From the NCBI GenBank assembly GCA_008330645.1, contig VLTN01000016.1, positions 434,001 through 498,000 of the forward strand: a DNA stretch of 64,000 nt, read 5' to 3'. The DNA comes from Cafeteria roenbergensis. Its lineage: Eukaryota > Sar > Bigyra > Bicosoecida > Cafeteriaceae. Position 1 is the first letter of the stretch. Each line of letters opens with the position of its first letter. The position numbers were made by a program, and so were the translations under genes. A model generated the notes under the pieces. That model saw only the letters and a list, made by a program, of their open reading frames with translations. It was not told where the DNA came from and did not search any database. This document shows, piece after piece, positions 37,449-60,100 of the stretch.

Positions 37449-39582
37449 ATGATAGATTCGGAAGACCGCCTGGGGTTTGACGGCCTGTCGTCGGAGCGGT
37501 TTCTGGACTCCGAGGCAGCCTCGGTGATACTGCGCGAGGCGGCGGACAAGGCTGTGGAGGATGCGGAGCCGCCCCCTGAGCCTCCACTGCAGCCCATGGT
37601 GTTCATGTGAGCAGGGCGTCACCGTTCGGCGCGCTATGTGCGGCAGCGTGCTTGCTAGGTCGCGGCCTGGCAAGCCTGGTCCCGGCCTTGGAGCGCTTGC
37701 GGCGCGGGGCTGCCGGTGACACGTCGCGGCTGCGCGGGGTGGCTGCGCACTCGCCGTCGCGCGCCCCGGGAGCCTCCGTAGCCCCCCCCCCGGCTTTGTG
37801 GTGCATGCACAGTCCGCGTTTGATCGGTCGTCATCGTGCGGTGGCCACCCAAGCGCGCCTGGTGTTGACGCTGCCCTCCCGCCGCAGCTATGTCGTTCTG
37901 GTCGCGATGGGCGGGGCGCTGTTCGGCCTCGAGATCTCCAACATCTCGACCGCCCACGAGCTCCTCTGCAACCACGACTTCGCCAGCGTGTGCGGCCCGA
38001 AGGCCAAGTCGACCGCCTTCTTCCAGGGGCTCGTGACATCGTGCATCACTATCGGCGCGTTTTTTGGAACTGCAACGTCGGGAATTCCCCAGGAGCGGCT
38101 CGGCAGGAAGTTCACGCTGGTCGTCGCAAGCGTCATTTACATCGTTGGCGTGGTCATCGAGATCGTTTCGCCGTCCTACGCAATCCTTGTGACCGGGCGG
38201 ATCCTCGTTGGCATCGGAGTCGGCTGGTTTGCCGCGACCGTGCCCATGTACATTGCCGAGCTCAGTCCGTCCTCCATCCGCGGCCGCCTTGTCACTGCAA
38301 ATCAGGTAAGCCGTCGCCTGTGTGCGACAGGGCGCGGCACGGCACCCGAGCGGCCGGGCGAAAGGGCAGCTGCGACTGTGCCGCCCCTCGCGCTGCGTGG
38401 AATGCGCGCTCCTTCGCAGCTGAACATCTGCATTGGCATCCTCCTTGGATACGTGGTCAACTGGGGCTTTGCGGGAGGCGCCTCCCCGCCGTCGGCCACT
38501 GCCTGGCGCTGGATTTTGGGCGTGGGAGTTGCCCCCGCAGCAGTTTTGTTCTTCGCCTTTCTGCTCGTCACTCCGCGCAGCCCTCGCTGGCTGGCCAAGC
38601 AGCACAGGTGAGCGGCGCTCGGGCGTGGATGCGACGCGCTTGGCCTCCCTTGCGTGGAAGGAGGGGCCGAGAGCGAGGGCGCAGCCCGTCGGTTGGTACA
38701 ACCGCCGCCGCCGCCGAGCACCCATGCCCCACGCAGCCCAGCGCGCACACCTTCCCCTTCCGCAGGCACGAGGAGGCGCGGCAGGTCCTTCTCAGTCTGC
38801 GCGGAGACTACCCAGCCTTCGTGGAGTGGGAGCTGCAAGGCATGATTTCGGCAACCACCGAGTCGGCGAGCGGGTGGGCCAAGCTTCGCGAGCCTGCCGC
38901 GATGCGCACCGTCCTCGTTGGCATCGCCATCAGCGTCATCCAGCAGATTGTGGGGGTCAACTCCGTCAACGGGTACGCGCCCCAGATCCTCGTCTCCGCC
39001 GGCTTCAGCGGCAAGAGCTCCCTCACGCTGAGCATCGTGATCGGCGTCGTCAAGGTCGGCTTCGTTGCCGTGGCCTTGGGGCTCATGGACTGCCTCGGCC
39101 GCAAGACCCTCCTCATCGGGGGCACCGTCGTGATGGGCGCTTCCATGATCGTGCTGGGCGTGCTCCTGGACAAGTACTCCTCGGACCCCCCGACATCCGT
39201 CGCTTGGGGCTCGGCGTCGATGCTCTTCCTGGCCATGGCATCATTTGAGCTGGGCCAAGGGCCCGTCGTTTGGCTGCTCATGTCCGAGATCTTTCCCCTC
39301 AACATCCGCGGCGCGGCCATGTCGCTTGGGTCCGCCTCGAACTTCTTGTTCAACTTCATCGTCATGCTCACGTTCCCCCTGCTCAAGTCCCCGCACGCGC
39401 TGGGTGAGGGCGGTGTCTTCTACCTCTATTCTGGCATTTGCTTTGCATCGTGCGTCTTCATCGGGGTGTTCGTTCCCGAAACGCGCGGCCGAACGCTCGA
39501 GGACATCGAGCAAGTCTTCCGACGAGGCACCGACCGGAAGCCCGCGTCCTCCGCGGCTGTCGGCCTGGCGCTCAACCAATAG
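37449..39582 (+). CDS. MFS sugar porter (hexose transporter family), four exons (526 aa)
   Basis: Exons 37449..37606, 37888..38305, 38420..38607 and 38766..39582. Donors are GTGAGC, GTAAGC, GTGAGC; acceptors GCCGCAG, TTCGCAG, TTCCGCAG; frame is kept throughout. Exon 1 gives an acidic cytosolic N-terminus (MIDSEDRLGFDGLSSERFLD) and enters the first membrane helix at the splice (MVF|IYVVLVAMGG). Sugar-porter signatures are present in order: RLGRK after helix 2, GRILVGIGVGW, PRSPRWLAK (PESPRWL box), QQIVGVNSVNGYAPQI in helix 7, LGRKTLLIGG, and the C-terminal PETRGRTLEDIEQVF. Twelve helices fit. The expected role is uptake or facilitated exchange of a monosaccharide across the plasma membrane or an internal membrane. 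The exact sugar is not readable. Confidence 0.93.
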
Positions 39583-39834: not shown

Positions 39835-42800
39835 TCAAGCGCTGAGCTGGACAGCTGCAACGGCGAGGGGCCGTGCCTCCACAGCGCCTCCCACATCCAC
39901 AACAGCAACGTCCACGCCAAGTACCGCGTCACAAACGCACCCCATATCCTTGGTAGCCCCGGCCCCGGAGCAGGCCGCCGCACAGGGCCCGCGAACCACA
40001 ACATCGAACGCCGCCAGCCTGTGGCCGGGCTGGCCCTCAATGGCGCTCAGGTCACCGACAGACACGCACTTTGGCGCCACCAACGACGCCCGCATGCAAA
40101 GGGCGGCGTCGCTCCCGTCGTCGCCCTCCGGAAGCGCCACCACAACTTGGACCTCAGCGACACGCGCCGCGCGCTCGGTATCCCAGCCGCCGTCGCTCGC
40201 CACGTCGAGCCGCAGACCCCACGCGCCCGCCTGTTGCTGCTGCTGCAGCAATTGTTGCTGGGTTCTCGCTCCCTCAGCAGCGTCGGCGTGGGCCGGCGCG
40301 GCAGGGGCCGCGATGGCGGCCCAGGCGCCCCTCACAGCCCGCATGAGGACCTGGGACCACTCCCGCATCGCCAATGGCGACAGCAAGACGGCGCGAACGC
40401 GCTGCGCAAGGGCGGCCCTGCCAGACCTGCGAGCCGCTGGCACCATTGCCGCGCGCGACTCCGCCACAGTGAGTGCCCTGGCGACGAGCTCCTCCCGAGA
40501 GCGCACTGCCCACTCGTGGAGGCCCGCGGCACTGAGGACAGCCTGGCTGAAGCGGCCCGACAGGGCGGTGCCGTGGGGCAAGGACACCACAGGCGTGCCC
40601 TGAAGCAGGGCCTCCATGGTGGAAGTGCACCCTCCAAAGGGGTACGTGTCCAGGACGACGTCTGCGCTTGCGAGGAGGCGGAGGAAGGCAGTGTGACCTC
40701 TCTGTGGCAGGAAGCGCACGTGTGAGAGGAGGTGCGCCACTGCCAGCTCCACGCCCAGCGAGACGGCGCTTGGGGCGTCGTTGGTGTGGGGCAACTCGGG
40801 TGCGGCGCCGGCCTCGGGGAGGGGCGCGCTGCCTGGACCGGGAGTCTGGGAGGGGAGCGAGAAGCCTAGCGAGCCTGCCTCAGCCTGGACTGCGGCGCGC
40901 AGCCTGGAGACGAACCGCCCTGAAACGGCCCTTGCTGTCGCCAGGGCGTCCGGCATGAGCAGCTGCACGATCGGCTTGGCCTCCGACAGGACCATGGACA
41001 GAATGGCTGCGTCGCCGTCGGGATGAATCTTCGCGATGGCCTGAGGCACGAGGACCCTGGGGCGGCGCTGGGGCGATCCGTCGGGGCGCTCGCTGCGGAG
41101 AGTCGACGGCACGGCAACTTGCCGCTCCAGGGCCGCAACGATGCTGCCGGCAACGATGCGAACCTCCGTTGCGTTGATCGCCTCGGGGACGGTGATGCTG
41201 CCGATGTTCGCCAGGTCAGACACGGCCCAGACAGCCTTGGAGGCGTTGAACACATCGCCGTCGTGGTGACTGGCCAGCGCCACCTCGCTGGGGGGCTCGG
41301 GCGAGGCGCGGGCTCCTGGGCCAGCGAAAGCTGCTGCCGCTGCCGCGGCCTCGTCGGCCTCGTCAGAGTCGACAATGAGCGGCGGGGCTTCCCAAAAGGG
41401 CGAGTGCGCCCCTGCGATACGGACCAGCTGCTCGGTGTAGCGCCACCAGCCGCCGTCCTCCTGTGCCGAGGGCTCTGCTGCGCCGGCTCGGCCAAGCCTG
41501 CTGAAGCGAAGCGCCGACCCTTCTCCCCACCCCGGCGCGCTCTCCCCAGGCCCTGCCACCTCTGCCTCGTCAAGAGAGACGAAGCCGTCGATTGTGTCGC
41601 TGAAGCCAGACGTGGTGGAATGCCCGTGAGTGACAAGCTGAAGGGGAGCAAGCCTTGCGGCTGCCAGGGAGAGGACCCTCGCGCTCATTCCCAGCTCAGG
41701 GTAAACCACGGCGTCGCACTGCAGCTGCCGTACCGCCAACCGGTCGGTGCCTGCGGATCCGCGCTCGTGGGCCGAGAGCGTAGGTGGCAGCTTCACGAGG
41801 GCGATGAGACCCTGCTCCTCGGCGCGCTCCAAGGCCTGGGCAGCGTCGCCTGTGGCCGAAGTGCCGTCGGCAAGCACGGCAACCACATCGAACGCGGGTG
41901 ACGCCGCCAGCCCGAGAACCAGCGGAAGGGCCACCTTGGACACGCTGTGGCGGTCGGGGAACGCGGTGATGAAGCAGACCCGCACGGGGCGCCGCTGCAC
42001 CGACGGGCCGGGGCCAGATGCGGTGTGGACAGAGCCAGACGGACTCGAGGGCGCGGCGTAGGCCGGCTCCTCGTCGGCTCCGGCAGCCGCCGCAGGACGG
42101 GGCTTTGGCCGGCTGAGCGGCAGCGTGAACGGGGAGAGGGCTGCTGCTGAGGCGGGAGTGAGAAACGGCCAGGCAGAGCCGCTGGCCGCTGCTTGCTCAG
42201 CCGGGTTGCACCCGTCGGGGAGCGCGAGTCGCGTTGCCAGCTGCGAGAGGGCATGCTTGAGCGACGCGTCGTTGCTGCCGTGGTAGGCTGCAGAGAAGGC
42301 GGCAGAGCCCCACACTGACTGCGAGGAGGACGTGCACGCGAGGGTACGCAGCCAGCGCCACTGGACGGCGATGGAAGGATCAGCGACTCCGGCCGCCCTC
42401 GCGGGCTGGTCGCCCCGCGCCTCCTCCTGCCCCGCGCGCGTGCAGGCCCAAGTGAGAGCACCCAAGCCGGTGGAGGCGTTCGCGGCCCACGCGAGAGTGG
42501 CGCCCAGGGCGGCCCGCTCCAGCGAGCGGGTGGGCTCCTCCTGTGGCGCAGCGGAAACGAGCGCCGAGGCTGCGGCTGCCACGGAGCAGGGGCAGCGGGC
42601 GAGCTTGCTGAAGGCGCGATCGGCCACGTCAGCTGCCGTTCCGCCCTGCCTATCGGACACGAAGAGAGCGGCAGTGCACTCCCCCGCACGCGATGCCATG
42701 GCCAAGGCTGCAGCGTTGTCGGCTGCCGCGGCGGCGTCGTCAGACAGCTGCAGCTCGGCGGCGCGGGGCAGCACAAGCGCTGAGCCTTGTGAGAGGGCCT

Positions 42801-43374
42801 CCAGCCGCTCCACAGCGCGCACGAGCGCCGATTGCGACACGCCTTGAAGCGGGATGCCCCAGGCGAGCGCTCTCAAGGAGCCAAGCGCCGACGTCGGAAG
42901 TGCGCTGACGTTGGCACTGCCGCCAGCTCGGAACACAGAGAGCACGTCCACACCGCCAAGCCGAAGAGCGTCCAGGAGGGTCGACTGCGCTTGCACGGCC
43001 AGACCGCTGAACAGCTGCGCCACGCCCAAGTTGTGGAGCACCATGCCCAGCACCTCGCGCGACGTCTCGCCGCCTTGGCCGGATGCCAAGTCTGCGTGAA
43101 GGGCGTCCGCTGCGCTTTCCAGGTACGGCATAGCGCTCCGAGCCCCGCCTTGCACCATCTGTGCTGTTGCTTGGCAGCCAAGCACGAGGCCGTCATCGCC
43201 GCAGGCCGCGTCGAGGCTGGCGAGGACCTCAGCGGCACCAGGCACCCCCGTGCTTTCAAGGGCGTCCAAGCATCGACGCCCGCCTTGCTTGCACGCGCTT
43301 TCGCCACCGGTCGCGCCAGCGATGCCGCACAGGACGCCACTGAGCGCCAAGGCGCATGCGACAGCGCCGCGCAT
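39835..43374 (-). CDS. GT41-family (O-GlcNAc-transferase-like) protein with signal peptide (1179 aa)
   Basis: The start at 43374 gives a textbook signal peptide (MRGAVACALALSGVLCGIAG). The frame is open to 43512 but that extension is Arg-rich and would bury the signal. Residues about 30-450 are helical and Ala-rich, with at least one TPR-like unit (VLHNLGVAQLFSGLAVQAQS). The catalytic region starts at about 460 (VRVCFITAFPDRHSVSKVA). It has the GT41 block APLQLVTHGHSTTSGFSD with IDGF, and the UDP-binding region VVLDTYPFGGCTSTMEALL followed by GTPVVSLPHG at about 900-930. A poly-Gln stretch lies near the C-terminus. Classical OGT and SPINDLY act in cytosol and nucleus, so a secretory-pathway member is unusual. 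The substrate is unknown. No introns are needed. Confidence 0.82.
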   Translation of the reverse strand: MRGAVACALALSGVLCGIAGATGGESACKQGGRRCLDALESTGVPGAAEVLASLDAACGDDGLVLGCQATAQMVQGGARSAMPYLESAADALHADLASGQGGETSREVLGMVLHNLGVAQLFSGLAVQAQSTLLDALRLGGVDVLSVFRAGGSANVSALPTSALGSLRALAWGIPLQGVSQSALVRAVERLEALSQGSALVLPRAAELQLSDDAAAAADNAAALAMASRAGECTAALFVSDRQGGTAADVADRAFSKLARCPCSVAAAASALVSAAPQEEPTRSLERAALGATLAWAANASTGLGALTWACTRAGQEEARGDQPARAAGVADPSIAVQWRWLRTLACTSSSQSVWGSAAFSAAYHGSNDASLKHALSQLATRLALPDGCNPAEQAAASGSAWPFLTPASAAALSPFTLPLSRPKPRPAAAAGADEEPAYAAPSSPSGSVHTASGPGPSVQRRPVRVCFITAFPDRHSVSKVALPLVLGLAASPAFDVVAVLADGTSATGDAAQALERAEEQGLIALVKLPPTLSAHERGSAGTDRLAVRQLQCDAVVYPELGMSARVLSLAAARLAPLQLVTHGHSTTSGFSDTIDGFVSLDEAEVAGPGESAPGWGEGSALRFSRLGRAGAAEPSAQEDGGWWRYTEQLVRIAGAHSPFWEAPPLIVDSDEADEAAAAAAAFAGPGARASPEPPSEVALASHHDGDVFNASKAVWAVSDLANIGSITVPEAINATEVRIVAGSIVAALERQVAVPSTLRSERPDGSPQRRPRVLVPQAIAKIHPDGDAAILSMVLSEAKPIVQLLMPDALATARAVSGRFVSRLRAAVQAEAGSLGFSLPSQTPGPGSAPLPEAGAAPELPHTNDAPSAVSLGVELAVAHLLSHVRFLPQRGHTAFLRLLASADVVLDTYPFGGCTSTMEALLQGTPVVSLPHGTALSGRFSQAVLSAAGLHEWAVRSREELVARALTVAESRAAMVPAARRSGRAALAQRVRAVLLSPLAMREWSQVLMRAVRGAWAAIAAPAAPAHADAAEGARTQQQLLQQQQQAGAWGLRLDVASDGGWDTERAARVAEVQVVVALPEGDDGSDAALCMRASLVAPKCVSVGDLSAIEGQPGHRLAAFDVVVRGPCAAACSGAGATKDMGCVCDAVLGVDVAVVDVGGAVEARPLAVAAVQLSA

Positions 43375-43964
43375 GCCGCTTCGTCGGCAAACACGCGCCG
43401 CTTCTGCTCGTCCCCGGGGCTCAAACCACCCCTGCCTCGCACTCCCAGCCCAAGCACCAGTCGCAGGGCTTGCCGGGGAGGGCGTCGTGTGGCGTCTCCC
43501 GGCGCCACGCAACGCCTGATCGAGTGGCTCTGCCGCGGAGCGGGGCCACGAGTGCGCGAGGTCCGACGCCCGGGCTGGCGTGAGAGACGGGAAGCAGGCT
43601 AGCCGCGCCCAAGGTCTATGTCAGGGGCTCGAGGACGGAGCGAACCGACGCGCTAGGGCCCAACGCGGGGCGGATCGCTGGATACTGAGGCTGCAGCAGC
43701 CATTCTGATCAGTGCAACACCCAGAAGCAGATCACGCACCGATGGGAAAATTCCCCTCCGACACGTACGAGTCGTTTGGTAGCTGCGGGCCGTGGGCCTG
43801 GCGAAAACTTGCCGTGCGGCGAGCTGGGCCCGAGCTAGACCAGGCAATGGCGGCTCAACAGGCCTCTGCGAGATGCCGCCAAGTTCAAACCACCTGCTGC
43901 AGGCTCTGCCGGTGGGCACCCTCCGGAGCACTCGGCCAGCCGCCCTCAGCTGGCCTTGCCTGCC
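43375..43964. other. Divergent promoter region, about 590 bp
   Basis: This separates the GT41 gene (-) from the FHA-domain gene (+). A short stretch near 43680-43780 is less GC-rich than its surroundings. No coding exon is supported, although an exon 0 for the + strand gene cannot be excluded. Confidence 0.4.
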
Positions 43965-46900
43965 ATGGAAGACGATGGCATCGACTGCGACCCGATCGGT
44001 GTGCTCACGATCATTCGCCGGAAGGGCCAGCGTGGGTCGTCTCTCGAGGTCTGCGAGCGGCTGCTCCTTGGCAGGTGAGCTCAGCCCGTTAACGGTAGCC
44101 ACCGTCGTCGCCTTCGCAACGCTCCAGTGACGCAACACGTGGCTTGCCGCCCCCTCCTCCTTTGCGCGTGCAGACTTGAGTCGTGCGACGTGCGCATCCG
44201 GATGAGCCAAGTTTCCCGCGTCCACGCAACAATCGAGCCGGACTACGAGAACGGCACCGTGAGCTCGAGCAGGCTTCCGCCCGCCCTGGCCCTTGCGCTG
44301 CACAACGCGCGACGCTCGCCCTCCGCACCCAAGCCCATTCCCCCCTCGGTCGCTTGCTAGCTGTGGCGCCCATCTAACGGTGCAGGTCTTCGTCGTGCCC
44401 CAGCCCGGGAGGCTTGTCAAGGTCAACGACGAGGTTGTGGACGGCGCAAGGATGCTGCTGTCCGGCGACCGCATTGGCATCGCCACCCGAGTTCTGGAAT
44501 TTGTGTACAGTGAGATGTCGCCCGTGCCTCGGCGAGGCTGTCTTTGGCGGTAGCGGAGTGTCCCCGTGGAACTCTCGTCGTGCCTGGCCGAACTGGGCTG
44601 CTTGGCTGCGCTCCGGCACTCTGCTGCCTTTTCAATGCCCCCCCTCTGCGCGCGCCGCTGCCTGCCCGATGCACGGCTCAGGTGATGAGGACTCCGCTCC
44701 CACAGAGCGGGACGAAAGGGCCGAGCGCGCCATGGCGGCGCGAGTGACTGGACACGATGCAGACGCTTTCGACGACGACGACGAGGAGGACGACACAAGC
44801 GGGCCTCGGGGCGACCCCACCGCCACGCTGGACCCGCGCAGCATCCAGGCCCTCCTCAGCATTGAAGCGAGGCAGACGCGCGCCGAGGCTGCCGCTGCGG
44901 CGATGGCCGCAGCCGCCTCGCCCAAAGTGGCACGCTCCCCGGCCGCGTCCAAGGCTGCCACTCCCAGCCGCAGGTCGTCCCGTGGGAGCGCGGCGGCAGC
45001 AGCCATGCCCTCCAAGGCCAGCCCCGCGCCGCGCCCCGCATCGGCTCGCAAGCGGTCAGCCCGAAAGGCCTCCGCACCGCGCCGCGCCAGCTCCATGGGC
45101 CTGACTGCCGCCCCGCTGCGCGGCCTCCGTGCTGCTGCTGCAGCCTTCGGCGCCGCAGACGTGGAGTCGTCGCTCGCACGCAGCCCCGCTGCAGCTGTCA
45201 TCGAGGCTGGTCGCCGCGTCCCGGCGCACGCGATTCAGCGGACGCCTGTCAGGACGCCCCGCCGCTCCAACGCGGGCTCTGCCTCCCGCCATTCGGCAAA
45301 GAAGGCGGCAGCCGCCGAGGCCGCTTCCGCAGAGCGCGCCCGCCACCTTCGCAGCCTCGTCCCGGCGCTGCGCCAGCAGATCGAGGAGCACGCCGGCATC
45401 GCTTCCTCTGAGCCAGTCACGGTCGGGGGCGTCACCCTGTCAGCCGACGCCCGCGACGAGCTGGCCCACGCCGCCGGTCTGCGAGGCGCTATCATGGCTG
45501 CCGAGCGCGTGGCTGCTATCGCTGGCGAAGATGCAGGCGCGTCAGAGGACGACGAGGAGGAGGAAGACGAGGCGGAGGAGGGGGACGACGACGAGGAGGA
45601 GGACGAGGAGGAAGACGAGGACGATGTTGGTGACGCCGCCGCCTCCCGTGGAGTGCCCCTCACCCCCAGCCAGCGCGATCGTCTGGACAACGTGGCTGAC
45701 GCTGCTGTCCGCAGCGCTCTCCACAGCGCCTCGAAGCCCCGCCGGCTGCAGACGCCGCTGCGCCATGAGATCGCCAACGCAGCGGCGCAGCGCGGTCTGA
45801 CGTTGGACGACACGGCGTCTGAGATCGCGACCGCTGCTGCGGCAACGAAGCTCCGGCGCGTGCTGTCGACGCCGCTGCGGGCGGCCATCGAGGCCCGCCT
45901 CTCGGCCGGGCAGGCAGACGAGGAGGAGGACGAAGACGAGGACGAAGACGAGGCGGAGGACGAGGAGGAGGACGATGAGGAAGACGATGACGAGGAGGAG
46001 GAAGACGAGGACGATGTTGGTGACGCCGCCGCTTCCCGTGGAGTGCCCCTCACCCCCAGCCAGCGCGATCGTCTGGACAACGTGGCTGACGCTGCTGTCC
46101 GCAGCGCTCTCCACAGCGCCTCGAAGCCCCGCCGGCTGCAGACGCCGCTGCGCCATGAGATCGCCAACGCTGCGGCGCAGCGCGGTCTGACGTTGGACGA
46201 CACGGCGTCTGAGATCGCGACCGCTGCTGCGGCAACGAAGCTCCGGCGCGTGCTGTCGACGCCGCTGCGGGCGGCCATCGAGGCCCGCCTCTCGGCCGGG
46301 CAGGCAGACGAGGACGAAGACGAGGACGAGGAGGAGGACGTCGACGAAGAGGAAGAGGAGGGGAAAGATATGCTTGCCCCTCGCGACGGCTACATCCAGC
46401 ACACGTTCTTTGACGACGATGGCAACGTCGTCAAGGTGGAGTTCGTGCCTGTTCGCGACGTCGCCGGGGCACACGTGTCCGTGTACGGAGAGGACGGCGA
46501 AGAGGTGGATTCCTATGTCCAGGCCGAAGAGGAGGCTGAGCATGAAGACGACGAGGACGAGGAGGAGGGCGAGGAGGAGCCCGAAGCAGTTGCGCAGCAG
46601 GCTCCATTGCGCACTGTGCCGCTGTGGGCCCTGCTCGGCGCCAACCGTCACGGCGTCGTAAGGGACTCGTTCGGCATGGGCTCGGGCGAGGGGCGGCCCA
46701 ACTCTCGGCTCGTGTTCGACGACAGCGAGCCCAGCCCTTCGCTGCGTCGCAGCCGTCGCCGGTCCTCTGCCGGCCGGCGCGAGAGCCAGGGCTCCGTGTA
46801 CCCTCCCGCAGGGTTCTTCGCCGTTGAGGACGACGACAGCGAAGACGACGGCGTGGTAGTTATGTCTGCCCGCCGTCGCAGCAGCGGTGGCAGCTCCCGC

Positions 46901-49900
46901 CGGTCGCTCCGCCAGTCGACTGGCCGCCGTTCCAGTGCAGGGTCGCGCCGCTCGTCGGGCGTCGCCAGCGTGGCGTTCCCTCCCGACATGTTCGCCCTGG
47001 AAGACGGCCAGGACACCGACGAGTCCGACGACATCCCTGACGCGGAGCTCGAGGGAGAAGAGCTCCGCAGGGAGCAGGCCGCGATGGCAGCTGCCCGCGA
47101 AGCGGCTCTTGAGCGGGACGCTGACCGGCGAGCGCGGGGAATCGTTCTCCCCTCCCCGATGGCACGTGACATCCACGCCCGCCGCGTGGCCACTCCCAAG
47201 AGCGCCTCGCGCCGTTCCAGCAGCTCTGGATCAGCGTCGGACCTCCTCTCCCCGGCGGAGCGCCGCATGGTGCGCCAGGAAGCGGAGGAAGCCGTGGACG
47301 CCGCCCTGGACCTTGCTGCGTCGAGGAACGCAACCCCGGAACAGACGCAAGCCATGGTTGAGCGCGCCGCTGAGTCGGCCGTGAGGAGCGCGGTCCGCAG
47401 CGCACTTCGCGGAGGCACCCCCGGCCGCACCAAGACCCCGAACCGTCGCGTGAGCTGGGGCAGCGAGCTTCGCCGCACCCGGGAGTTTGACAAGAACATG
47501 GAGCCGTCCGACGTGGGGGGCCGCAGCTCGTGGGGCGAGGAGGGGGAGGACCAGATCGCAGAGCCCGTGACGCTCCTCCAGGCCTTGGACGCGGCAGAGG
47601 CGGCGGACGACGAGCACGGAGAGTCCGGGAGTGAGAGCGAGAGTGAGGACGAGGGCAGCAGCGAGGAGGAGGCCGCCGACCAGGACGCCGACACGGAGGA
47701 CGAGGCAGAGGATGCGGCTGTCCCCGCTGGGCTTGGTCGCCCCCTGCGAGTGCTGCAAGGGGACCCCGACGAGCTCGAGGCCGCCGGAATCATCCACCTG
47801 GGCCCCGGCGCTGCCGCGCTCCAGAACCAGCTGGAGGCCGAGGCAGGCTTTGCCGAGGCCGACGAGGAGGTGGAAGAGGAGGACGACGGCCTGGACACCG
47901 TTCACGAGCACGAGGACGAGGACGAGGACTATGACGCCGCCAGCCTCGCTCGTCCGAGCCTCCTCCGCCCCGGAGAGGCCATCCTCCCGGCGCCCAGGCG
48001 TCGCTCATCCGTGGGGAGCATCAAGGCCCGCTCTCAGCCAACTCCTCCGGCGCGCCGTGCATCGTCTGTCATGGCTTCGAGCGGAAAGCGCGCGCTGAAG
48101 CGCCCTCGTGACTCATCCGGCTCTGCGATTCGCCTCTCTCGCGGGGCGTCCCCGGCGCCGGCGTCCTCGGCAACCCCCTCGGCGAGAACGTCTCCGGCAG
48201 CTGCTGCAGCTGCCGCTTCAGCTGAAGTCGAGCTGGGTGCGGCCGCCCAGGCCGCAGTTGACCGCGCAATGAGCGTCATCAGCCTCCAGTCACCCGCAAA
48301 GCGCTCGCGTCGCGGGTCCATCGGCAGCCCGGGTTCCAGCCCTGCGCAGGCAGCGGCGGCTGCGGCCAGCCCCGAGGCGATGGCGCTGTCTGCCGAGCTC
48401 TCAGACCTTGAAGCCCGGCTTCAGTCCGTGGGCTCCATGCGCGTTGTGGACGCCGTGGACACGCTCGCTTGGCTCGGGCAGGACTCCAAGAAGTGCAAGA
48501 AGGCCATTCTCGTCGCCAAGGTCACGGCGGCACTGGAGGCGCGCATCGCAGAAGTGGAAGCGGCCCTCGCCGCCGTCCTTGCCTCTCGCAGCGCTGCCGG
48601 TCCTGGCGCTGCCCCGTCCCCCGCTGCGTCGGCGCACGCTGGCAGCGGCGCGGAGAGCGACGCGTCGGGCTCGGAAGACAGCGGCGAAGATGACGACGCC
48701 GACGACGAGGGCGCCTCTTCGGACGGCGAAGAGCCCGACCCCGCTGATGTGGCCCGCCTCGTCGATGAGCTGCAAAAGCAGCGGGTGGTTGACCTGCGCG
48801 TCATGGCCACAGCCCGCAACGTCAGCTGGAACGGCATGCGCAAGCCTCAGCTCCTGCAAGCCCTGGCCTCGGAGATGGCCAAGGCGCAGGCGAGCAAGCC
48901 CAAGGCAAGCTCTACCCCAGCCAAGCGCTCGCCCTCCCGCGCCGGCGCTGCCTCGTCCTCCCCCGCCTCCGCCTCGCATCCCTCCGCGGCGTCTGTTGGC
49001 AAGGTGCTGCGCGAAAGCCTCCGCTTCGCCGACCTCAACGACCTCTGCCTTCAGGTGGACGCCCCGCGCGGCTCCAAGGCGACCAAGAACTCCATGGCTC
49101 TCTCCCTCGCCAGGCACCACCTGACCGTTGAGCCCATTGCCAAGGTGGCCGCCCTGCTCCAGGAGCTCTCGCCAGCCGAAGCTGCTGCGGCCAGCGTTGT
49201 GAGGGCGTCGCCCGGTGCTGCCGCGGCAGCACCGGGGACTCCGTCTGCTGTGGCAGCTTCGCCGTCTCGCGCTGCAACTGCTGATGCCGTTGACGACGCA
49301 ACCGCCAGCACTGACAGCGCGGCCGTGGCCGCAATGGCTGACTTGCTCAGCAACCGCTCCTTCAACCAACTCAGGAAGGAGGCTTCAGCCCGTGGCATCA
49401 AGTTCAGCACTAGACCGAACAAGGCCATGCTGGTGGAGACACTGTCCCTTGTGCTTGCCAAGGAGAGCGTTGAGGGCGACGAGTCCGACGATGACGAGAC
49501 TGACGGCGAGGGCGAGCAGGACCAGGACCAGCCTGCGCAAGAGTCGACGCAAGCGCCTTCCCGGGCAACTGCCACTGCGGCGGGGCTCGAGGAGGATGAT
49601 GCCGACGAGGACGTCGACGCTGCCCCGGCTGCAGCGGCGTCTGCTGCGTCCCCAGCCCGCGCCACCACGGCGGGCGGCCTCCTGAAGCTTGAGCCGTTGA
49701 GCGACATCGAGGCGTCCATCGCTCGCCGCGGCATCACCGACCCCGCGGATGTGGAGCTGGTGACGAAGGACATCAATCACCACCGCCGTCGCTTCAGAGG
49801 GCGCAGCCATGCATGGCTCGCGAACTCCCTGCGAGAGCACGGCGTGGACGTCAAGCCCTCTTTCACCAGGCAGCAGGTGATTAACCTCTTGGCGGACCAG

Positions 49901-49933
49901 TGCGCCTTCGATGCGCACGACCAGCGCGACTGA
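43965..49933 (+). CDS. FHA-domain chromatin protein with PP1-docking-like motif and SAP-like repeats, four exons (1856 aa)
   Basis: Exons 43965..44074, 44174..44258, 44386..44509 and 44682..49933. Donors are GTGAGC, GTGAGC and GTGAGA, and joins are in frame. Exons 1-3 encode an FHA domain (residues 1-107): GVLTIIRRKG, LLLGRLESCDVRI, MSQVSRVHATIE, LVKVNDEVVDGARMLLSGDR. GR, SRxH and N are the phosphothreonine-reading residues. Exon 4 is mostly disordered and acidic. Near residue 1027 is RRVSWGSELRRTREFD, an RVx(F/W) motif laid out like the PP1-docking region of Ki-67 and Repo-Man. The C-terminal third has SAP-like helices (VVDLRVMATARNVSWNG, FNQLRKEASARGIKFST, WLANSLREHGVDVK). A nuclear, mitotic chromatin scaffold is inferred; true Ki-67 orthology is not shown. 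Confidence 0.8.
45608..46313. repeat. Internal direct duplication in the FHA gene (316-bp core, offset 390)
   Basis: The core at 45608..45923 recurs at 45998..46313 with only a few silent changes. Each copy encodes the same segment (RGVPLTPSQRDRLDNVAD ... LQTPLRHEIANAAAQRG ... VLSTPLRAAIEARLSAGQ). Acidic runs of variable length flank both cores. The TPLR-x2-I phrase appears twice per copy. Copy number probably varies between alleles. Confidence 0.92.
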
Positions 49934-50136: not shown

Positions 50137-53100
50137 TTACTGCTTGCGCTTGCCCTTGCGGGGCTTGCCCGACGGCTTGCCCTTGCCCTTGGGCTTGGCC
50201 CTCTTGGCCGCCGAAGTGGTAGGGCGCTTCGCAACGGCGGAAAGCGCCGATGCAGCAGGGCGCTTGATCCAGCGCAGCTTGGTGGCCCACTCGACGATTT
50301 CGCCGACTGCGAATCCAGCAAAGGAGCAGGGCGCCGCTCCGCGGGTCGTGCAAGGCACCCTGCTGTCCGGCACAGACGGGCTGGTCCAAGCCTCAACGGC
50401 GTCGCCAAGGGCCACGGGCCCATCTGGGATGGGCAGGAGTGGGGACCCCTCTGGGTCCGTGGCGGGAACGGTGCCGGCAACGACAAGGCGGTTCAAAGTG
50501 CCGTCCTGCGCAGTGAGCCACGTGCCGCGGACAGCGAGAGAGGGGGTCAGAGCGAGCGAGCGCGCGCGCAACTGCAAAGGATGCATCGCTGGATGCGAAT
50601 TCTTGAAACTGTGGCCGCCGGCTCCCGAGGCCACTGCACCCACCGGAAGCACAGGGGCACGGACCATGCGGCGGATCGCAGGCGGACCAGCGACACTCAC
50701 GCCGATTGTCACTTGCATCGCCCAGTCAAAGCGGTCCGACACTTGCTCGAGGATGCTGTCCAACACGCTGGCAACGCGGCACGCGATGTTGATCACTACG
50801 CAGCCGCCAGGGCGCAGGCACGCCTTGGCGTCCGCCAGGAAGGCGCTGTCGACAAAGACCTGCGAAGAAAACACGCGGGCAAGAGGGGAAGAGGGCGTTC
50901 GCGAGGCGTTTCGCGGGGCAACAGCACCACGACAAACTAGGCGCTGCTCGGCGACAAACGACGAGCCCGTGGCTGCGCGGCACAACGGGAGCGTACCTTG
51001 GGCGGGAAGGAGAGGCCAGAGGAGAGGTCCTTTGCGTCGACGTCCACCACGATGGCGTCCAGACCCCACGCGCTTGTGAGCTCCCATGGCGCGCCAGCCG
51101 CTCCCTCAGCGCCGCGTTCGGCCGCGCACGCCTCCGCGCGCGCACGAATATGAGCGACCCCGTCCCCGACGGTGAGCACGCACCTGCCGTCGTCGTTGTC
51201 GGGCAGGAACCCGAAGTAGTCTCGGGCAACGGCTGCGACCGTTTCGTCCAGCTCCACGCAGTGCACGCGAGCGGGAGGAGCCACGCAGCGAACCGGGGCA
51301 GCGCCTGAGCCCGCACGCCCGTCCCGGGGCACGCACCCGTACGGGTCAAGCGGCCCCGCGGGTGGCTGCCCAGCTGGCGCAGCGGGCAGGGTCGGAACGC
51401 GGCCCCCGCCCAGGCCCCGGGCCAGGAACATCGCCAGCCCTCCCCCGCCCAGACCAAGCACGCACACGCGCATGCAACCTGGGTGCGAGGTCCCCGGGGG
51501 ACCGCTGGAGGGGCCCGCGGCAGCCCCGTCGCCCAACGCTGCGAGCCGAACAGCCCGGGCGCCGGCCTGCGCCGCCGGCAGCGCCAGGCAAGCCAGCACG
51601 GCCTGGTGGTACTCGAACGGAAGATGCGAAAAGTCCACAGCAGGCACGGTCACGCCAGACTCGGCCGGCGGCAGCGTGGTGGGCTGCAAAATGCCTGCAA
51701 CGCCGGCAAGCGGGAGCGTCGCGACCGTCTCCGTCGGGGAGCTGGCGTCGTCTGTGTCCTTGTGAGCAGCGCCCCCCCGCCTTCTCTTCTTGGCCCTCAG
51801 GGGCCCTGTGATGCGCGCCTCGCTCTGCACCGCTGCCTGGTTGGAAAAGAAGACCAGGCGCCGAAGCCGGGGGTAGCCGAGCGCGTCCTCCTCAGTGGAG
51901 GTCTCCGCCCCGGCGGCGGCGGCGGCGGCGGCGCGCCCGCTGGCCTTGGCCTTTGCGGAAGAGGCTGTCTCGCTGTCCGGGTCTGGGACGTCTTCGATGG
52001 TCATTGCGCCGCTGAGCGGTGAGGTGACTTCTGCTACGGTGAGCACGACGTCGTCCTCACTGGCCACTCCCATCCAAGCGATGGGGCCTGCGAGATCGGC
52101 CGGCGCGGCTGCCGCAACGGCGCCTTCTACCTCGGCGCGAACCGCCGCCTCGTCGCCGAACGAATGGCCGCGGTTGCACCGCACCACGAGAAGACGGCCC
52201 ATGCCCGTCTGAGCCGCGAGCGACGCGCGTCCCTCGTCCGTCCCAAAGGTCCACTCGGCCTCCCGTCCCCTGGGCACAACGAGAGCGCAGCAGGTGCGCT
52301 GCTCCGAGGCGTCCACGGCAAAGAGCGTGAATCGAGCAGACGAGCGCGTGGCTTCGGCCGCGGCCTCGGGCCTCGAATCGAACAGGTCCATGGAGAGGGC
52401 TTGGCCCGCCTTGGTGGTCTGCAGGAGCTGCTTGGTGCGGTGGCGCACCCCTGCGGCGTGGACGAGGACCTGGAGCGCGCCGGACGAGGCCACTGCTTCC
52501 CCGGCCTGTGTGGCCGACGCGACTGGGGCCGGCGCAGGCACGGCGGAGTCGAGGAAGCGCCAGTTCTCAAGGACGATGCTGGGCGCACTGGCCTCGGGCC
52601 CGGAGGCGGCAGAGCTGGATCCCGGACTGGTGGGAGCGGCTGCCGGTGCCCCTGCGGCCCCCGCCAGCACAGCGGCGACGACATCAGGAGCTGGGGTTGT
52701 GGCTGCGTCCGCTGCCGCCTTTCGCACCACCACGATGAAGGGGCACAGCATCGACTGCTCTCGCGGCTGGAAGGGCGCCACGGTCACCTCCCACGCCCTG
52801 CCTGCGAAAGTGGCCGCCAGGCACTGCAGCACCTGGCTCTGCAGGAGCGACACGCAGACATAGACACCACCGGCCTCGAGGACACGGCCGCCCTCGGAGA
52901 GAAGGGCTGCGGCGTCTGCGGCCGCATCGGCAAGCGGCTCGGGCAGAACTGCGTCAAGCGTTCCCTTGTCCACGACAGACCCCACGCTGCCCGCATCCAG
53001 GCCGGTGGCACGCGCGTCGCCGACTTCCCACTTCATCTCGGGCCGGTCTGCAGTCTTGCGCCGCATCGACTCGATCACGCCCTCGGAGTAGTCCATGCTG

Positions 53101-53348
53101 ACAATGTCAGTCAGGCCAGCGCCGAACAGCTCTTCAGAGAGCGTCGAGTTGCCGCAACCGGTCACCAGTACCGGCCGGCCGGAGGGAATCGCCGCCAGCA
53201 TGGCATCGCGAATGTCCTCCCAAGCCCCGTACCACTCGAAGGCCTTGGTTCCGCGCCGCGCGAAGAAGTCGTCCCAGTAGGCCTTTTTCCGAAAGGACTC
53301 CTGAGACGACGGAAGCAGCCCAGATGCGTCAGCCATGCCAGAGGCCAT
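50137..53348 (-). CDS. METTL13: METTL13-like double methyltransferase (eEF1A methyltransferase), three exons (959 aa)
   Basis: Exons 50997..53348, 50701..50859 and 50137..50505. Donors are GTACGC and GTGAGT, and joins are phase 0. The N-terminal class I methyltransferase (residues about 15-230) has the family opening SYWDDFF-like KKAYWDDFFARRGTKAFEWY, motif I VLVTGCGNSTLSEELF, MDYSEGVIESM and VVDKGTLDAVL. The second methyltransferase (from about 625) has CVLGLGGGGLAMFLARG, VHCVELDETVAAVARDYF and IVVDVDAKDLSSGLSFPP. It continues through the splice into VFVDSAFLADAKACLRPGG. Human METTL13 has the same two-domain layout and methylates the eEF1A N-terminus and Lys55. The protein ends in a Lys/Arg-rich tail (PKGKGKPSGKPRKGKRKQ), likely nuclear or RNA-binding. 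Two starts are possible, 53348 or 53336. Confidence 0.92.
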
Positions 53349-53940
53349 CGCGTGTGCGCGGGACAGCACCGGGCTGGCTTGCCTGCGCACCAAAGTGCCG
53401 CAGTCCTGGCACCGGGCATTGAGGCTGGTTCTTGTCGCTGCTTTCCGAGGCTCTGCCAGGGCTGACACGGACGACGCGGAGTTGCCAACCAGAGCGGGCG
53501 AGCAGGCCGGCCGACACCCGCGACAACGCCCCGCTGCGAATGGCGGATGCGCATCCTCGCTCGGAGCGGCGGAGGCGTGCGCGCCTCGCGATCGGAGCTG
53601 GTTCGATTGAGGCATCGTGGTGGCCGCGCTGCACGCCTCCACGAACCCAACACTTGGTGGCGACGGGAGCATGCAGGGATCAGTCACGCACGCACACACA
53701 CACACACGCACACGGCACTCGCGCAAGAGAGCGTCATGGCTCACGTTCGCAGCTCTGGCCCCGCCAGTGCGGGAGCAGGGCATCCGGGAGCCGGCGGGTC
53801 TAGCCCCAGCGTGGCTCTCCGATGCTGGCGCGATGCCCGCAGTCGCGCGCTTCCAGGGCCCCCGCCTTCCTCGCGGCCTGGAACCGAGGAGGGGGGGGAC
53901 CGCAACGAAGTGGCCACCGCAGGCCGGTCAGTACATTCAG
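53349..53940. other. Intergenic region upstream of METTL13
   Basis: About 590 bases between METTL13 and the small membrane protein gene, both on -. It contains the CA-rich microsatellite at 53685..53713. The long - strand frame extends into it but has no family resemblance before the METTL13 start. Confidence 0.4.
53685..53713. repeat. CA-dinucleotide microsatellite, about 29 bp
   Basis: CACGCACG followed by CACACACACACA and CACGCACAC. It is noncoding, about 340 bp upstream of the METTL13 start. Confidence 0.85.
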
Positions 53941-57189: not shown

Positions 57190-60100
57190 ATGTCCGCGGC
57201 CGAGACGGGCCCTTGGTTTCCCAGCCCCCTGCGGCGGCGCCCGGAACCGCGGCTGCTTTCGCCCCTACCAGCGATGCCCCAGTCGACAGCATCGCCGCAC
57301 AAACACAAGAGGGCTGGTTCAGGGTCTGGAGGCGCATCTCCGTCCCGGCTGCCGCGCCACTTTCGCACGGCCCCGAGCAGGGCGCCCGCTCCCCTGGGGC
57401 GGACACGCCCAAGCGGCATGGAGGAGCACACGGCCAGGCACCCGCCCCAGGTGTCGCAGGGCTCGCAACCAAGGACATCACCTCCGAGCTCTCCTCTTCG
57501 CGCGGGCTTAACTTCGAGGCGAGAGATGCCGCTGGTGACCGGCCGCAAGTCCGACAGCTCTTGGCGCAGCGGTCGACTGGGAGCTCAGGCGCTTGCTGTC
57601 GTGGACGGCTTCGACGTGATGGACACGTCGACGCTTTCCATCCCCGAGCTTCAAGCGATTCTCCGCAACCTGCCAGACCCAACAGGGCCCGCCGGCAGAG
57701 CGGGACGACGTGCGCACACCACAGCTGGCTCGCGTCGACCTGGCGTGCCGAGGCTCTCGGACCGGCCGTGGATTCGGTGGCACGTCCTTCAGCCGAAGAA
57801 GGGTGGCAGCAAAGCGGTCGACGCCAGCGCCAGGGGAGATGCCAAGGAGGCGCCTTGGGACTCGACGCTGTCCGAGGAGCCCAGTGAGGCTGAGGCGTTC
57901 ACGCTGCCGCCTGCCGACTCCCTTCTTCCCGGTGGCCACGGCGCCGGAGGCAGGCAGCAAGGCTCCACGGAAGGGGGAGGTGGGCGCTCCGGGGGTGAAA
58001 GCGAGGGAAGTTCGGGCGCTGGCCGTTCTGAGTTTGAAGGGTCAGACGGCCTCGGCGACGGAAAGGAGCACGGCGTGGGACTGACTGAAGAGGAAATGGT
58101 TGTGGAAGAGGCATTCCGAACAGGAAAAGGGCTTTGGAAACTGCTTGCAAGGAGGATCAAAATCATCGGCAGACTGATGAATCTGGGCAAGTCGGCCCGC
58201 TTCGTGCCGCTCGACCACCCGATCCTCAATGTGTCGTGGCTGCGGCACGGCATCGAAGACTCAGTGCCGATCCGCTGTATTCTCCGCCCGCCAGATGGAG
58301 ATGCGCTGGCGCGGGTCGGGCCGGGACCTCTCTTTGTCCGCGCAGCAACGCGCAGGGGCTTCCGCTTCCAAACAGACGCGCTGTCGCTCGACATCCCAGA
58401 TACCGGCAAGCCGCTCCCGCAGTTCGGCAGCAACGGGGCGTGTGCCCAGATGTTGGCAGCAGCCGAGGTGGCCTACCAGCCCGGGCCAGGGCGCGGCTGC
58501 TGCGACATCACAGCCACGTGGGACGGGCCGGCGCTCGTGCGCGGTGCGCGTCACGCCGCCTCCTCCAAGTTTTGTTTTTCGGCCACCGTCGGAAAGCAGC
58601 CCCTCAAAGCGTGCCGCACGGTCTTGGTTCCCATCAACGTCGGCGCTCCTGGTCATGCCACGGGTGTTGCTGGGGCCAAAACAATGGTCCGAGTGACACC
58701 ATTAGCGCCGAGGGTGCCGTTCAACCCGAAGCGAAGCACCGCGCTGGGCTTCAAGTTCGAAGAGGTGGACCTCGATGATTTGGCCATGGTTCTGCACGAC
58801 GAGACCTTGCTAGGCAGCCTCGACCTGGATGGACGCAACACCACTGACTCCCTTCGCCTGCACTGCGTCATTTCGGGCGGGTACATGAAAGGCGAGGATC
58901 GCCTCCTGCTGCTGGCGACTGCTGCCGAGGCGGAGAATGCGGTGGAGAACTACCGAGTCAGCTGGAACACGGAGGACGGCGTGCTCACGATTGCTCCAAA
59001 GTCAAACAAACTGACCCTGCCCGAGCTGCTCGGAATCCTCCCCAGAGTGGCATTTGCCAACTCGCGCGGGATAGTCCTGGAAGTCGGCGAGAGAGTGGTG
59101 GAGGCTCGCCTCGTGGACCCCATCGTCGTGCGGTGCAACAACGCGGCGGCGCCTGCCATGCAGGACCTGTGCGATGCGGAGAGGCAGTTGCTTCTGAAAA
59201 CGACCATCGAGCGGCGCACGGGTGTGATCAGCATGAAGGTTGCTCGGCTCTACGCCGACGCCGACGCTGGAAAGACCGCAAAGGCCTCGTCGGAGCAGCT
59301 CAAGATGAGGCACGCACGGAAGGCAATGCTTGCAACCCTTGGAGACTTCCGCGACGCTCACTACGACCTAGCGACTCGCAAACTACAAAAGGTGATCGCC
59401 GTGCGCCGGGCTGAGAGGGTGCTGCGCATGCAATTCCTGCCACTGGTGCGCCCGATCCTCTTTGCGATCAGGATGAGGCTCGCTGCTGCCGCCAAGGAAA
59501 AGGAGCAGGCTGAGCAAACTCGCCTGGACGAGCAGCGGGAGCGTGCAACCTCTGGCCAGGTTCCCCCACGAAGCGCTGACTCGCACCAAAGCCGTCCCGC
59601 TGTTGGTGGGAGGCAGGATGTGCCCCGAGGCAAGGCTGGGGAGCCATCATCGGCTGGAAGCTCCGATCCAGCGCCCCACCTCCTCCGCCGAAAAGTTCGA
59701 GACGTCGCAGGCGAAGGCATCGTGCCAGGGGCGCGAGCCAGGCCCTCGACAACCGGCCTGAGCGGCGGAACCGTCGACATCCCGGCGGGGCATCCGAGCA
59801 TTAAGGCGCTCGAAGGCGGGCACGCCGAGTCACCAGGTGCCTCGGGGGTGGCTGCAAATGTCCGGTCTGCAGGGCGCGGAACGACTGCGTCTGCCGCGCT
59901 GACAGACGCGTTCCGCATTTCCAGCGAGGATGATGGCCATCGGTCGGCGACGTCGAGCAGGCAGGCACTCATGCGCCGCCCGGCGCAGGATGATGAGCCA
60001 GCCGGGGCTGGCACAGACCAGGCACCCGCGCAGCTCGGCGGGCTTCCAGGCCCAGCCCCTGCCGGGGGCGAACCACTTTGGCCTGCGGGCCATGGCAAAT

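What the first reader, a model, noticed from the sequence alone, without database searches (positions are those of the whole stretch)
43965..49933. FHA protein with a Ki-67/Repo-Man-like PP1-docking segment in a protist
The N-terminal FHA domain, a long acidic repeat-bearing middle, an RRVSWGSELRRTREFD segment near residue 1027 and C-terminal SAP-like helices form an unusual set. The segment shares RVS(F/W)-G-x2-L and a following FD with the vertebrate Ki-67/Repo-Man PP1-binding stretch, although spacing differs by one residue and the downstream part is not conserved. FHA plus that motif is the Ki-67 N-terminal plan. If real, a mitotic chromosome-surface PP1 scaffold could be far older than usually thought, or has arisen twice. 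RVxF-type motifs are short, so convergence is possible.
Basis: partly seen in the sequence, partly recalled or inferred. Interest (0 to 1): 0.72.

Follow-up and report, generated by a model that had tools for sequence, protein, structure and literature searches.

The report
Ki-67-like FHA and phosphatase-docking protist protein
A marine flagellate carries a large protein whose front domain most resembles that of the human dividing-cell marker Ki-67 and which also holds a likely phosphatase-docking stretch like Ki-67's, hinting that this way of managing chromosomes at cell division may predate animals and fungi.

Summary
The core observation holds. The gene lies at 43965-49933 (+), four modelled exons, 1856 aa, in an assembly that fits Cafeteria strain BVI. 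Its N-terminal FHA domain (Pfam 34.6 bits) has human Ki-67 as best sequence match among solved structures (E 4e-4; next TIFAB 0.024); in reverse, Ki-67's FHA ranks it first of 14 FHA sequences of this genome, narrowly. A degenerate anchored pattern, chosen after seeing the match, appears in 0 of 100000 shuffles. Pattern-free similarity to Ki-67 is modest (10 of 2000 shuffles; 3rd of 1620 open segments), to Repo-Man not significant, and Pfam PP1_bind misses it. Ki-67 repeats are absent and no clear basic C-terminus is seen. Bridgin of fungi and Amoebozoa already extends the Ki-67 plan beyond animals. Best reading: a stramenopile Ki-67/bridgin-like PP1 scaffold of mitotic chromatin, probability about 0.5. 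No orthologue could be examined.

The parts
43965..44074 (+). exon 1, start of the FHA region (to R37, split codon)
   Evidence: spliced open frame, GT-AG
44174..44258 (+). exon 2, FHA core GRxxxCDVRI...VSRVH
   Evidence: PF00498 34.6 bits on the spliced protein, residues 34-97
44386..44509 (+). exon 3, FHA second half (VND...LLSGDRIGI), ends in the codon of residue 107
   Evidence: Ki-67 2aff aligned over residues 14-107
44682..49933 (+). exon 4, rest of the protein and stop codon
   Evidence: codon-position GC 0.75/0.55/0.79 for the whole CDS; join to exon 3 rests on GT-AG and phase only
45548..46597 (+). acidic middle, residues 396-745
   Evidence: pI 4.05, net charge -87
45644..45919 (+). 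92-aa repeat, copy 1, with two TPLRxxI motifs
46034..46309 (+). 92-aa repeat, copy 2, identical protein
47447..47506 (+). PP1-docking candidate R1029-P1048 RVSWGSELRRTREFDKNMEP
47978..48367 (+). basic stretch, residues 1206-1335, pI 12.0
48746..48889 (+). helix-extended-loop-helix candidate 1 (residues 1462-1509)
   Evidence: Rho_N 17.4 bits, below cut-off
49319..49477 (+). SAP-like candidate 2 (residues 1653-1705)
   Evidence: SAP 15.2 bits, below cut-off
49688..49930 (+). C-terminal four-helix domain, residues 1776-1856
   Evidence: AlphaFold2 pLDDT 88.8, pTM 0.76; no solved match

Best explanation
A Ki-67/bridgin-like phosphatase scaffold of mitotic chromatin. Steps: (a) the FHA domain binds a phospho-threonine partner on chromosomes, the nucleolus or the kinetochore (FHA shown by profile; partner inferred); (b) RVSW and the following FDxNMxP stretch dock PP1 through its RVxF pocket and part of the KiR pocket (inferred from sequence and from intact pockets in both PP1 genes); (c) an Aurora-type basophilic kinase phosphorylates the S of RRVS early in mitosis and keeps PP1 off, as reported for human Ki-67 S507 (inferred here); (d) at mitotic exit PP1 is delivered to chromatin (inferred); (e) the long acidic, repeat-bearing middle is a charged spacer, and the basic stretch with the C-terminal helical modules holds DNA or chromatin (inferred).
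For: Ki-67 is the best solved match of the FHA, and in reverse the window FHA ranks first of 14 FHA sequences of this genome. Segment: RVS(F/W)GxxL, then FDxN(L/M)xP; the two residues in hydrophobic PP1 pockets (Ki-67 F517, P523; Kumar 2016, PMC5005033, passages) stand 6 apart in both (here F1042, P1048). A degenerate RVxF...FDxx(hydrophobic)x(P/A) pattern arises in 0 of 100000 shuffles. Both PP1 genes keep R20, R74, E77, Y78, F81 and Q294, and all 12 further pocket positions checked except 287 (D for E in one gene). Outside the FHA, (S/T)P sites number 37 against 13.8 expected and (R/K)(R/K)x(S/T) 17 against 3.4 (0 of 2000 shuffles each), as in a mitotic phosphoprotein. N-terminal FHA with an acidic middle (pI 4.45 for 111-1205) parallels bridgin (pI 4.65, PMC7794384, passages).
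Against: Pfam PP1_bind does not match the segment, and its genome search gave only two weak matches elsewhere (17.4 and 16.8 bits, cut-off 27). Pattern-free similarity to Ki-67 is modest (10 of 2000 shuffles; two of 1620 open segments score higher), to Repo-Man absent (1364 of 2000). RVxF to FD is one residue longer, the hydrophobic pair is R-E, and N(T/S)PL(R/K)(R/K)G is missing. In Kumar 2016 the alanine change of the buried F did not harm Repo-Man function, and a search of Swiss-Prot with the degenerate KiR motif found only Ki-67 and Repo-Man (passages). PP1 position 23 is R in both genes, as in human PP1alpha, not K as in gamma. R20 is common outside PP1alpha (recalled), so it discriminates little. 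No Ki-67 repeats. Residues 111-395 are basic (pI 10.78) and 1206-1856 as a whole are not (pI 5.78). FHA score margins are small. No orthologue, no transcript and no localisation seen.
Confidence: 0.5

Rival explanations
1. An unrelated nuclear FHA scaffold that gained an RVxF PP1 site on its own (convergence; NIPP1 also joins FHA and RVxF, recalled). It docks PP1 in the nucleus but not for a Ki-67-like mitotic role.
For: RVxF motifs are short; the segment differs in spacing and lacks the second half of the KiR stretch; FHA score modest and close to that of another FHA of the genome.
Against: The FHA has no match to NIPP1 (2jpe) at E up to 10, although 2jpe is in the library (it appears); the KiR residues F and P would have to arise by chance as well.
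Confidence: 0.3
2. The RVSW segment is not a PP1 site; the protein is a DNA-damage or chromatin adaptor of the MDC1 kind (N-terminal FHA, acidic middle, TP-rich repeats) with a lineage-specific C-terminus.
For: TPLR motifs (4, two per duplicated unit, against 0.02 expected) could be phospho-docking sites; pattern-free similarity of the segment to Ki-67 is modest.
Against: No BRCT or other C-terminal reader in Pfam scans of exon 4; MDC1 structures do not match this FHA at E up to 10, though they match another FHA of the genome.
Confidence: 0.15
3. The gene model is wrong: the FHA exons and the long frame belong to two genes.
For: No transcript data. Exon 3 ends just after the FHA, so its join to exon 4 rests on GT-AG and phase alone; the long frame is open upstream of 44682 and has an in-frame ATG at 44669. 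Long open frames are common at 70% GC.
Against: Four exons join into one open frame with GTGAG donors and CAG acceptors throughout.
Confidence: 0.05

Closest known systems
Ki-67 (MKI67), animals
   Same: N-terminal FHA (best solved match); RVSF-GxxL...FDxNLxP segment partly shared; long low-complexity spacer
   Different: PP1 candidate at residue 1029 instead of 505; no Ki-67 repeats; one extra residue and no NTPLKRG half; no LR-type basic C-terminus shown
Bridgin (Bgi1), fungi; bridgin-like proteins in Amoebozoa
   Same: N-terminal FHA, acidic middle with repeats, putative PP1 docking site (PMC7794384, passages)
   Different: Bridgin's putative PP1 site lies at 161-164, after the FHA, and its residues 1005-1295 are basic (pI 11.2); here the basic stretch is 130 aa and is followed by acidic and helical parts. 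Sequences not compared: none of the libraries searched returned a bridgin
Repo-Man (CDCA2)
   Same: RV(S/T)(F/W)GxxL and FD
   Different: alignment not significant (1364 of 2000 shuffles); no FHA in Repo-Man (recalled)
NIPP1 (PPP1R8)
   Same: FHA plus RVxF in one protein (recalled)
   Different: FHA of another type (no match at E up to 10); much shorter protein (recalled)

Membership tests
Ki-67 | N-terminal FHA of the Ki-67 type | tested here: inconclusive
   best solved match, E 4e-4, first of 14 in reverse; margins 23.8 against 18.0 bits and 22.5 against 20.8 bits
Ki-67 | PP1_bind domain (PF15276) | tested here: not met
   no match at E up to 10 to the segment nor at this locus in the genome search; only some residues are kept
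Ki-67 | Ki-67 (K167R) repeats | tested here: not met
   no Pfam family at E up to 1 in the 1749 aa of exon 4, and none of that kind among the weak matches of its pieces
Ki-67 | LR-rich basic chromatin-binding C-terminus | tested here: inconclusive
   basic 1206-1335 (pI 12.0) but 1206-1856 pI 5.78
Ki-67 | perichromosomal localisation in mitosis | not testable with these tools
   needs imaging
bridgin | N-terminal FHA | tested here: met
   PF00498 34.6 bits at residues 34-97
bridgin | sequence similarity of the FHA to bridgin FHA | not testable with these tools
   no bridgin sequence was available; supplements not readable
bridgin | acidic middle with repeats | tested here: met
   111-1205 pI 4.45; two identical 92-aa units. 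The repeat motif was not compared with bridgin's
bridgin | middle part unstructured | not tested
   no disorder predictor run
bridgin | basic C-terminal domain | tested here: inconclusive
   as above
KiR-SLiM regulators | FDxxLP(P/A)N(T/S)PL(R/K)(R/K)Gx(T/S)P after RVxF | tested here: not met
   only FDxN(M)xP present; then SDVGGRSSWG
NIPP1 | FHA of the NIPP1 type | tested here: not met
   2jpe not matched at E up to 10
MDC1 | C-terminal BRCT pair | tested here: not met
   no Pfam family in exon 4 at E up to 1

The most novel reading that the evidence does not exclude
The joined plan of Ki-67, a phospho-reading FHA plus an RVxF-KiR-type PP1 dock on one long charged chromatin scaffold, is inherited from the common ancestor of Amorphea and SAR, close to the last eukaryotic ancestor; in this stramenopile it survives with a reduced KiR stretch and its own C-terminal four-helix module.
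Probability: 0.3. Interest if true: 0.75.

Novelty: new variant of a known kind. Interest (0 to 1): 0.52.

Why it matters
The passages that I read place Ki-67 in animals and its relative bridgin in fungi and Amoebozoa, all Amorphea. A stramenopile protein with the same plan would move the origin of FHA-PP1 chromosome scaffolds to before the split of major eukaryote lineages, and give a single-celled organism in which to ask what the scaffold does without the animal repeats. It would also show which part of the KiR docking stretch is old.

Tried and rejected
Pfam PP1_bind over the segment and over the genome: nothing at this locus. NCBIfam: nothing relevant. The segment against solved chains: only a SNAP-25 construct, E 1.2, taken as chance. 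Relatives in viral contigs (two scans) and genome contigs (one scan): pattern matches, none confirmed. Second copies of the C-terminal parts or of the repeat in the genome: none at the locus's level (all 5 matches are this gene, next best E 0.28); the FHA was not searched this way. Weak matches of acidic pieces (PPP4R2 E 9e-4, DUF2457, DUF3246 and others, all below cut-off) rejected as composition. Foldseek for the C-terminal 521 aa and the last 81 aa: best E 2.9 and 1.8. A TFIID-1 hit to the last domain, E 0.04, rejected as weak. Paper search for the TPLR motif by letters: 0 papers; my recollection that animal and fungal relatives carry similar TPLR motifs stays unverified. That R20 in PP1 shows co-evolution was dropped (R20 is common, recalled). 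Paper searches on Ki-67 or bridgin outside Amorphea: (0 papers), and listings of 25 of 28, 10 of 4,266, 15 of 52, 10 of 10 and 10 of 784 (probably noise from words such as bridging); no listed title or abstract start reports a stramenopile member, and unlisted papers were not seen.

Full report
What is there. The window is contig 16, 434001-498000, of a genome of 36,303,456 bases in 167 contigs; the window is 64-75% GC in 2-kb steps. Published assembly CrBVI of Cafeteria (170 contigs, 36,327,047 bases, 70.1% GC; PMC6972860, passages) fits closely, so the organism is very probably this bicosoecid stramenopile; the tools did not name it. The gene model has three short exons (43965-44074, 44174-44258, 44386-44509) and one long one (44682-49933), junctions GT-AG, one open frame, 1856 aa. 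Codon-position GC is 0.75/0.55/0.79. The join of exon 3 to exon 4 falls just after the FHA and rests on GT-AG and phase; an in-frame ATG lies at 44669. No Rfam family reaches its gathering score in the window. The C-terminal parts and the repeat have no second copy in the genome.

FHA domain. The spliced N-terminus matches PF00498 with 34.6 bits. The whole-genome family search listed 13 FHA matches, none at this locus, where the domain is split over three exons. Against 177,635 distinct solved sequences the first two matches are the two Ki-67 FHA entries (E 3.8e-4 and 4.1e-4, query residues 14-107), then TIFAB (0.024, 37 residues), kanadaptin (0.38) and a terminase (0.83). NIPP1, MDC1, CHFR, Rad53, RNF8, Chk2 and nibrin are in that library (they appear) but do not match at E up to 10. 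Control: 3 of the 13 other FHA matches were searched in the same way; their first hits are MDC1 (33.6 bits), an uncharacterised protein 2n84 (32.5 bits) and CHFR (41.1 bits). The last one also reaches Ki-67 with 22.6 bits, as fifteenth hit, so 23.8 bits by itself is not special; the rank is. In reverse, Ki-67's FHA scores the window protein 22.5 bits, the CHFR-like one 20.8, and the best of the other twelve 11.7 (14 sequences given, 11 listed; several of the 13 others are single exons and so incomplete).

The PP1 segment. PDB letters: Ki-67 RVSFGGHLRPELFDENLPPN, Repo-Man RVTFGEDLSPEVFDESLPAN; window RVSWGSELRRTREFDKNMEPS. Kumar 2016 (PMC5005033, passages) gives Ki-67 505-508 as RVxF, 515-516 as the hydrophobic pair, 517-535 as the KiR stretch, with F517 and P523 in two hydrophobic pockets, and S507 as an Aurora B site that hinders PP1 binding when phosphorylated. 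The same paper says that changing the buried F to alanine did not harm Repo-Man function. The window keeps RVS, G, L, F, D, N and the second P, with F-to-P spacing of six as in Ki-67, one extra residue before F, R-E at the pair, and nothing of NTPLKRG. RRVS fits a basophilic kinase, and two TP sites lie just upstream.

How unlikely is it? Shuffles of the protein: loose RVxF 6586 of 20000, RV(S/T)(F/W) 378, R(V/I)(S/T)(F/W) then FD 5, with GxxL 2, FDxN(hydrophobic)xP 7, combined 0; a more degenerate combined pattern 0 of 100000, RVxF...F(D/E) alone 76 of 100000. These patterns were set after seeing the match, though RVxF and FDxxLP(P/A) come from the paper. A test without chosen patterns is weaker: Smith-Waterman of the Ki-67 peptide (gap opening 11) gives 42, reached by 10 of 2000 shuffles; the Repo-Man peptide is not significant (1364 of 2000). 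Among 1620 open segments of at least 100 aa (383,001 aa; window plus 20 stretches of 10 kb) the window segment ranks third, behind scores of 44 and 43; the GxxL and FDxN(hydrophobic)xP patterns each occur once, here. Pfam PP1_bind does not find it.

PP1 itself. Two PP1 genes are present (88% and 78% identity to the typed human PP1gamma over residues 31-302). Both have R at position 20, and R74, E77, Y78, F81, Q294; both have R at 23, where PP1gamma has K. Of 12 further pocket positions, listed from memory, one gene differs at 287 (D for E). The docking surface is there; this is expected of most PP1 (recalled) and only fails to contradict.

Rest of the protein. Residues 111-395 are basic (pI 10.78), 396-745 strongly acidic (net -87), 1050-1205 too (-48), 1206-1335 basic (+16). 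The middle holds a 92-aa unit twice with two TPLRxxI motifs each (4 TPLR in all against 0.02 expected; the duplication doubles that count). Outside the FHA, (S/T)P sites number 37 against 13.8 expected and (R/K)(R/K)x(S/T) 17 against 3.4. Helix-extended-loop-helix candidates at 1462-1509 and 1653-1705 stay below Pfam cut-offs. The last 81 residues give a confident four-helix model (pLDDT 88.8, pTM 0.76) without a solved counterpart. Pfam finds nothing at E up to 1 in the 1749 aa of exon 4 in one piece, hence no BRCT and no Ki-67 repeats; pieces give weak, below-cut-off matches to acidic stretches.

Comparison with what is known. Booth 2014 (PMC4032110, passages and section 6) aligned the Ki-67 PP1 segment from animals as far as Hydra and Trichoplax. 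A review says that the PP1 motif is conserved in all orthologues of Ki-67 (PMC8354752, passages). Sridhar 2021 (PMC7794384, passages) describes bridgin with FHA 1-124, a putative PP1 docking site at 161-164, an acidic middle (pI 4.65) with 13 repeats and a basic C-terminus (pI 11.2), and calls Ki67 the metazoan homologue; a review adds Amoebozoa and Dictyostelium (PMC9252888, passages). The supplements, which list the non-fungal homologues, could not be read, so a stramenopile member may already be in that list. The listings of my paper searches (several cut short) show none. It works like a Ki-67/bridgin scaffold in plan; it fails two Ki-67 membership tests (PP1_bind, repeats) and is therefore filed as a variant, not as Ki-67.

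Verdict. The decisive test, conservation in related protists, could not be run.

Noticed in passing
window 45644-45919 and 46034-46309: A 92-aa unit duplicated in tandem with identical protein sequence, carrying TPLRHEI and TPLRAAIEAR motifs; looks like a young duplication inside a coding exon (inferred).
   Followed up: partly
window 49688-49930: An 81-aa C-terminal domain predicted with high confidence from a single sequence, without a solved or above-cut-off Pfam counterpart.
   Followed up: yes
G000 contig 41, 30823-31638 (L012, L014): A second, more diverged PP1 gene (78% against 88% identity to human PP1gamma) with R at position 20.
   Followed up: partly
window 50937-53783 (-): Neighbouring frame with methyltransferase domains (Methyltransf_11, 34.2 bits); looks like a long methyltransferase of the METTL13 kind (that name is recalled).
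   Followed up: no
window 57190-62949 (+): 1919-aa open frame with no Pfam match at E up to 0.001.
   Followed up: no
window 39835-43512 (-): 1225-aa frame with a below-cut-off match to glycosyltransferase family 41 (22.9 bits, cut-off 25).
   Followed up: no
window 37798-39582 (+): 594-aa frame with a strong Sugar_tr transporter match (181.3 bits); ordinary.
   Followed up: no
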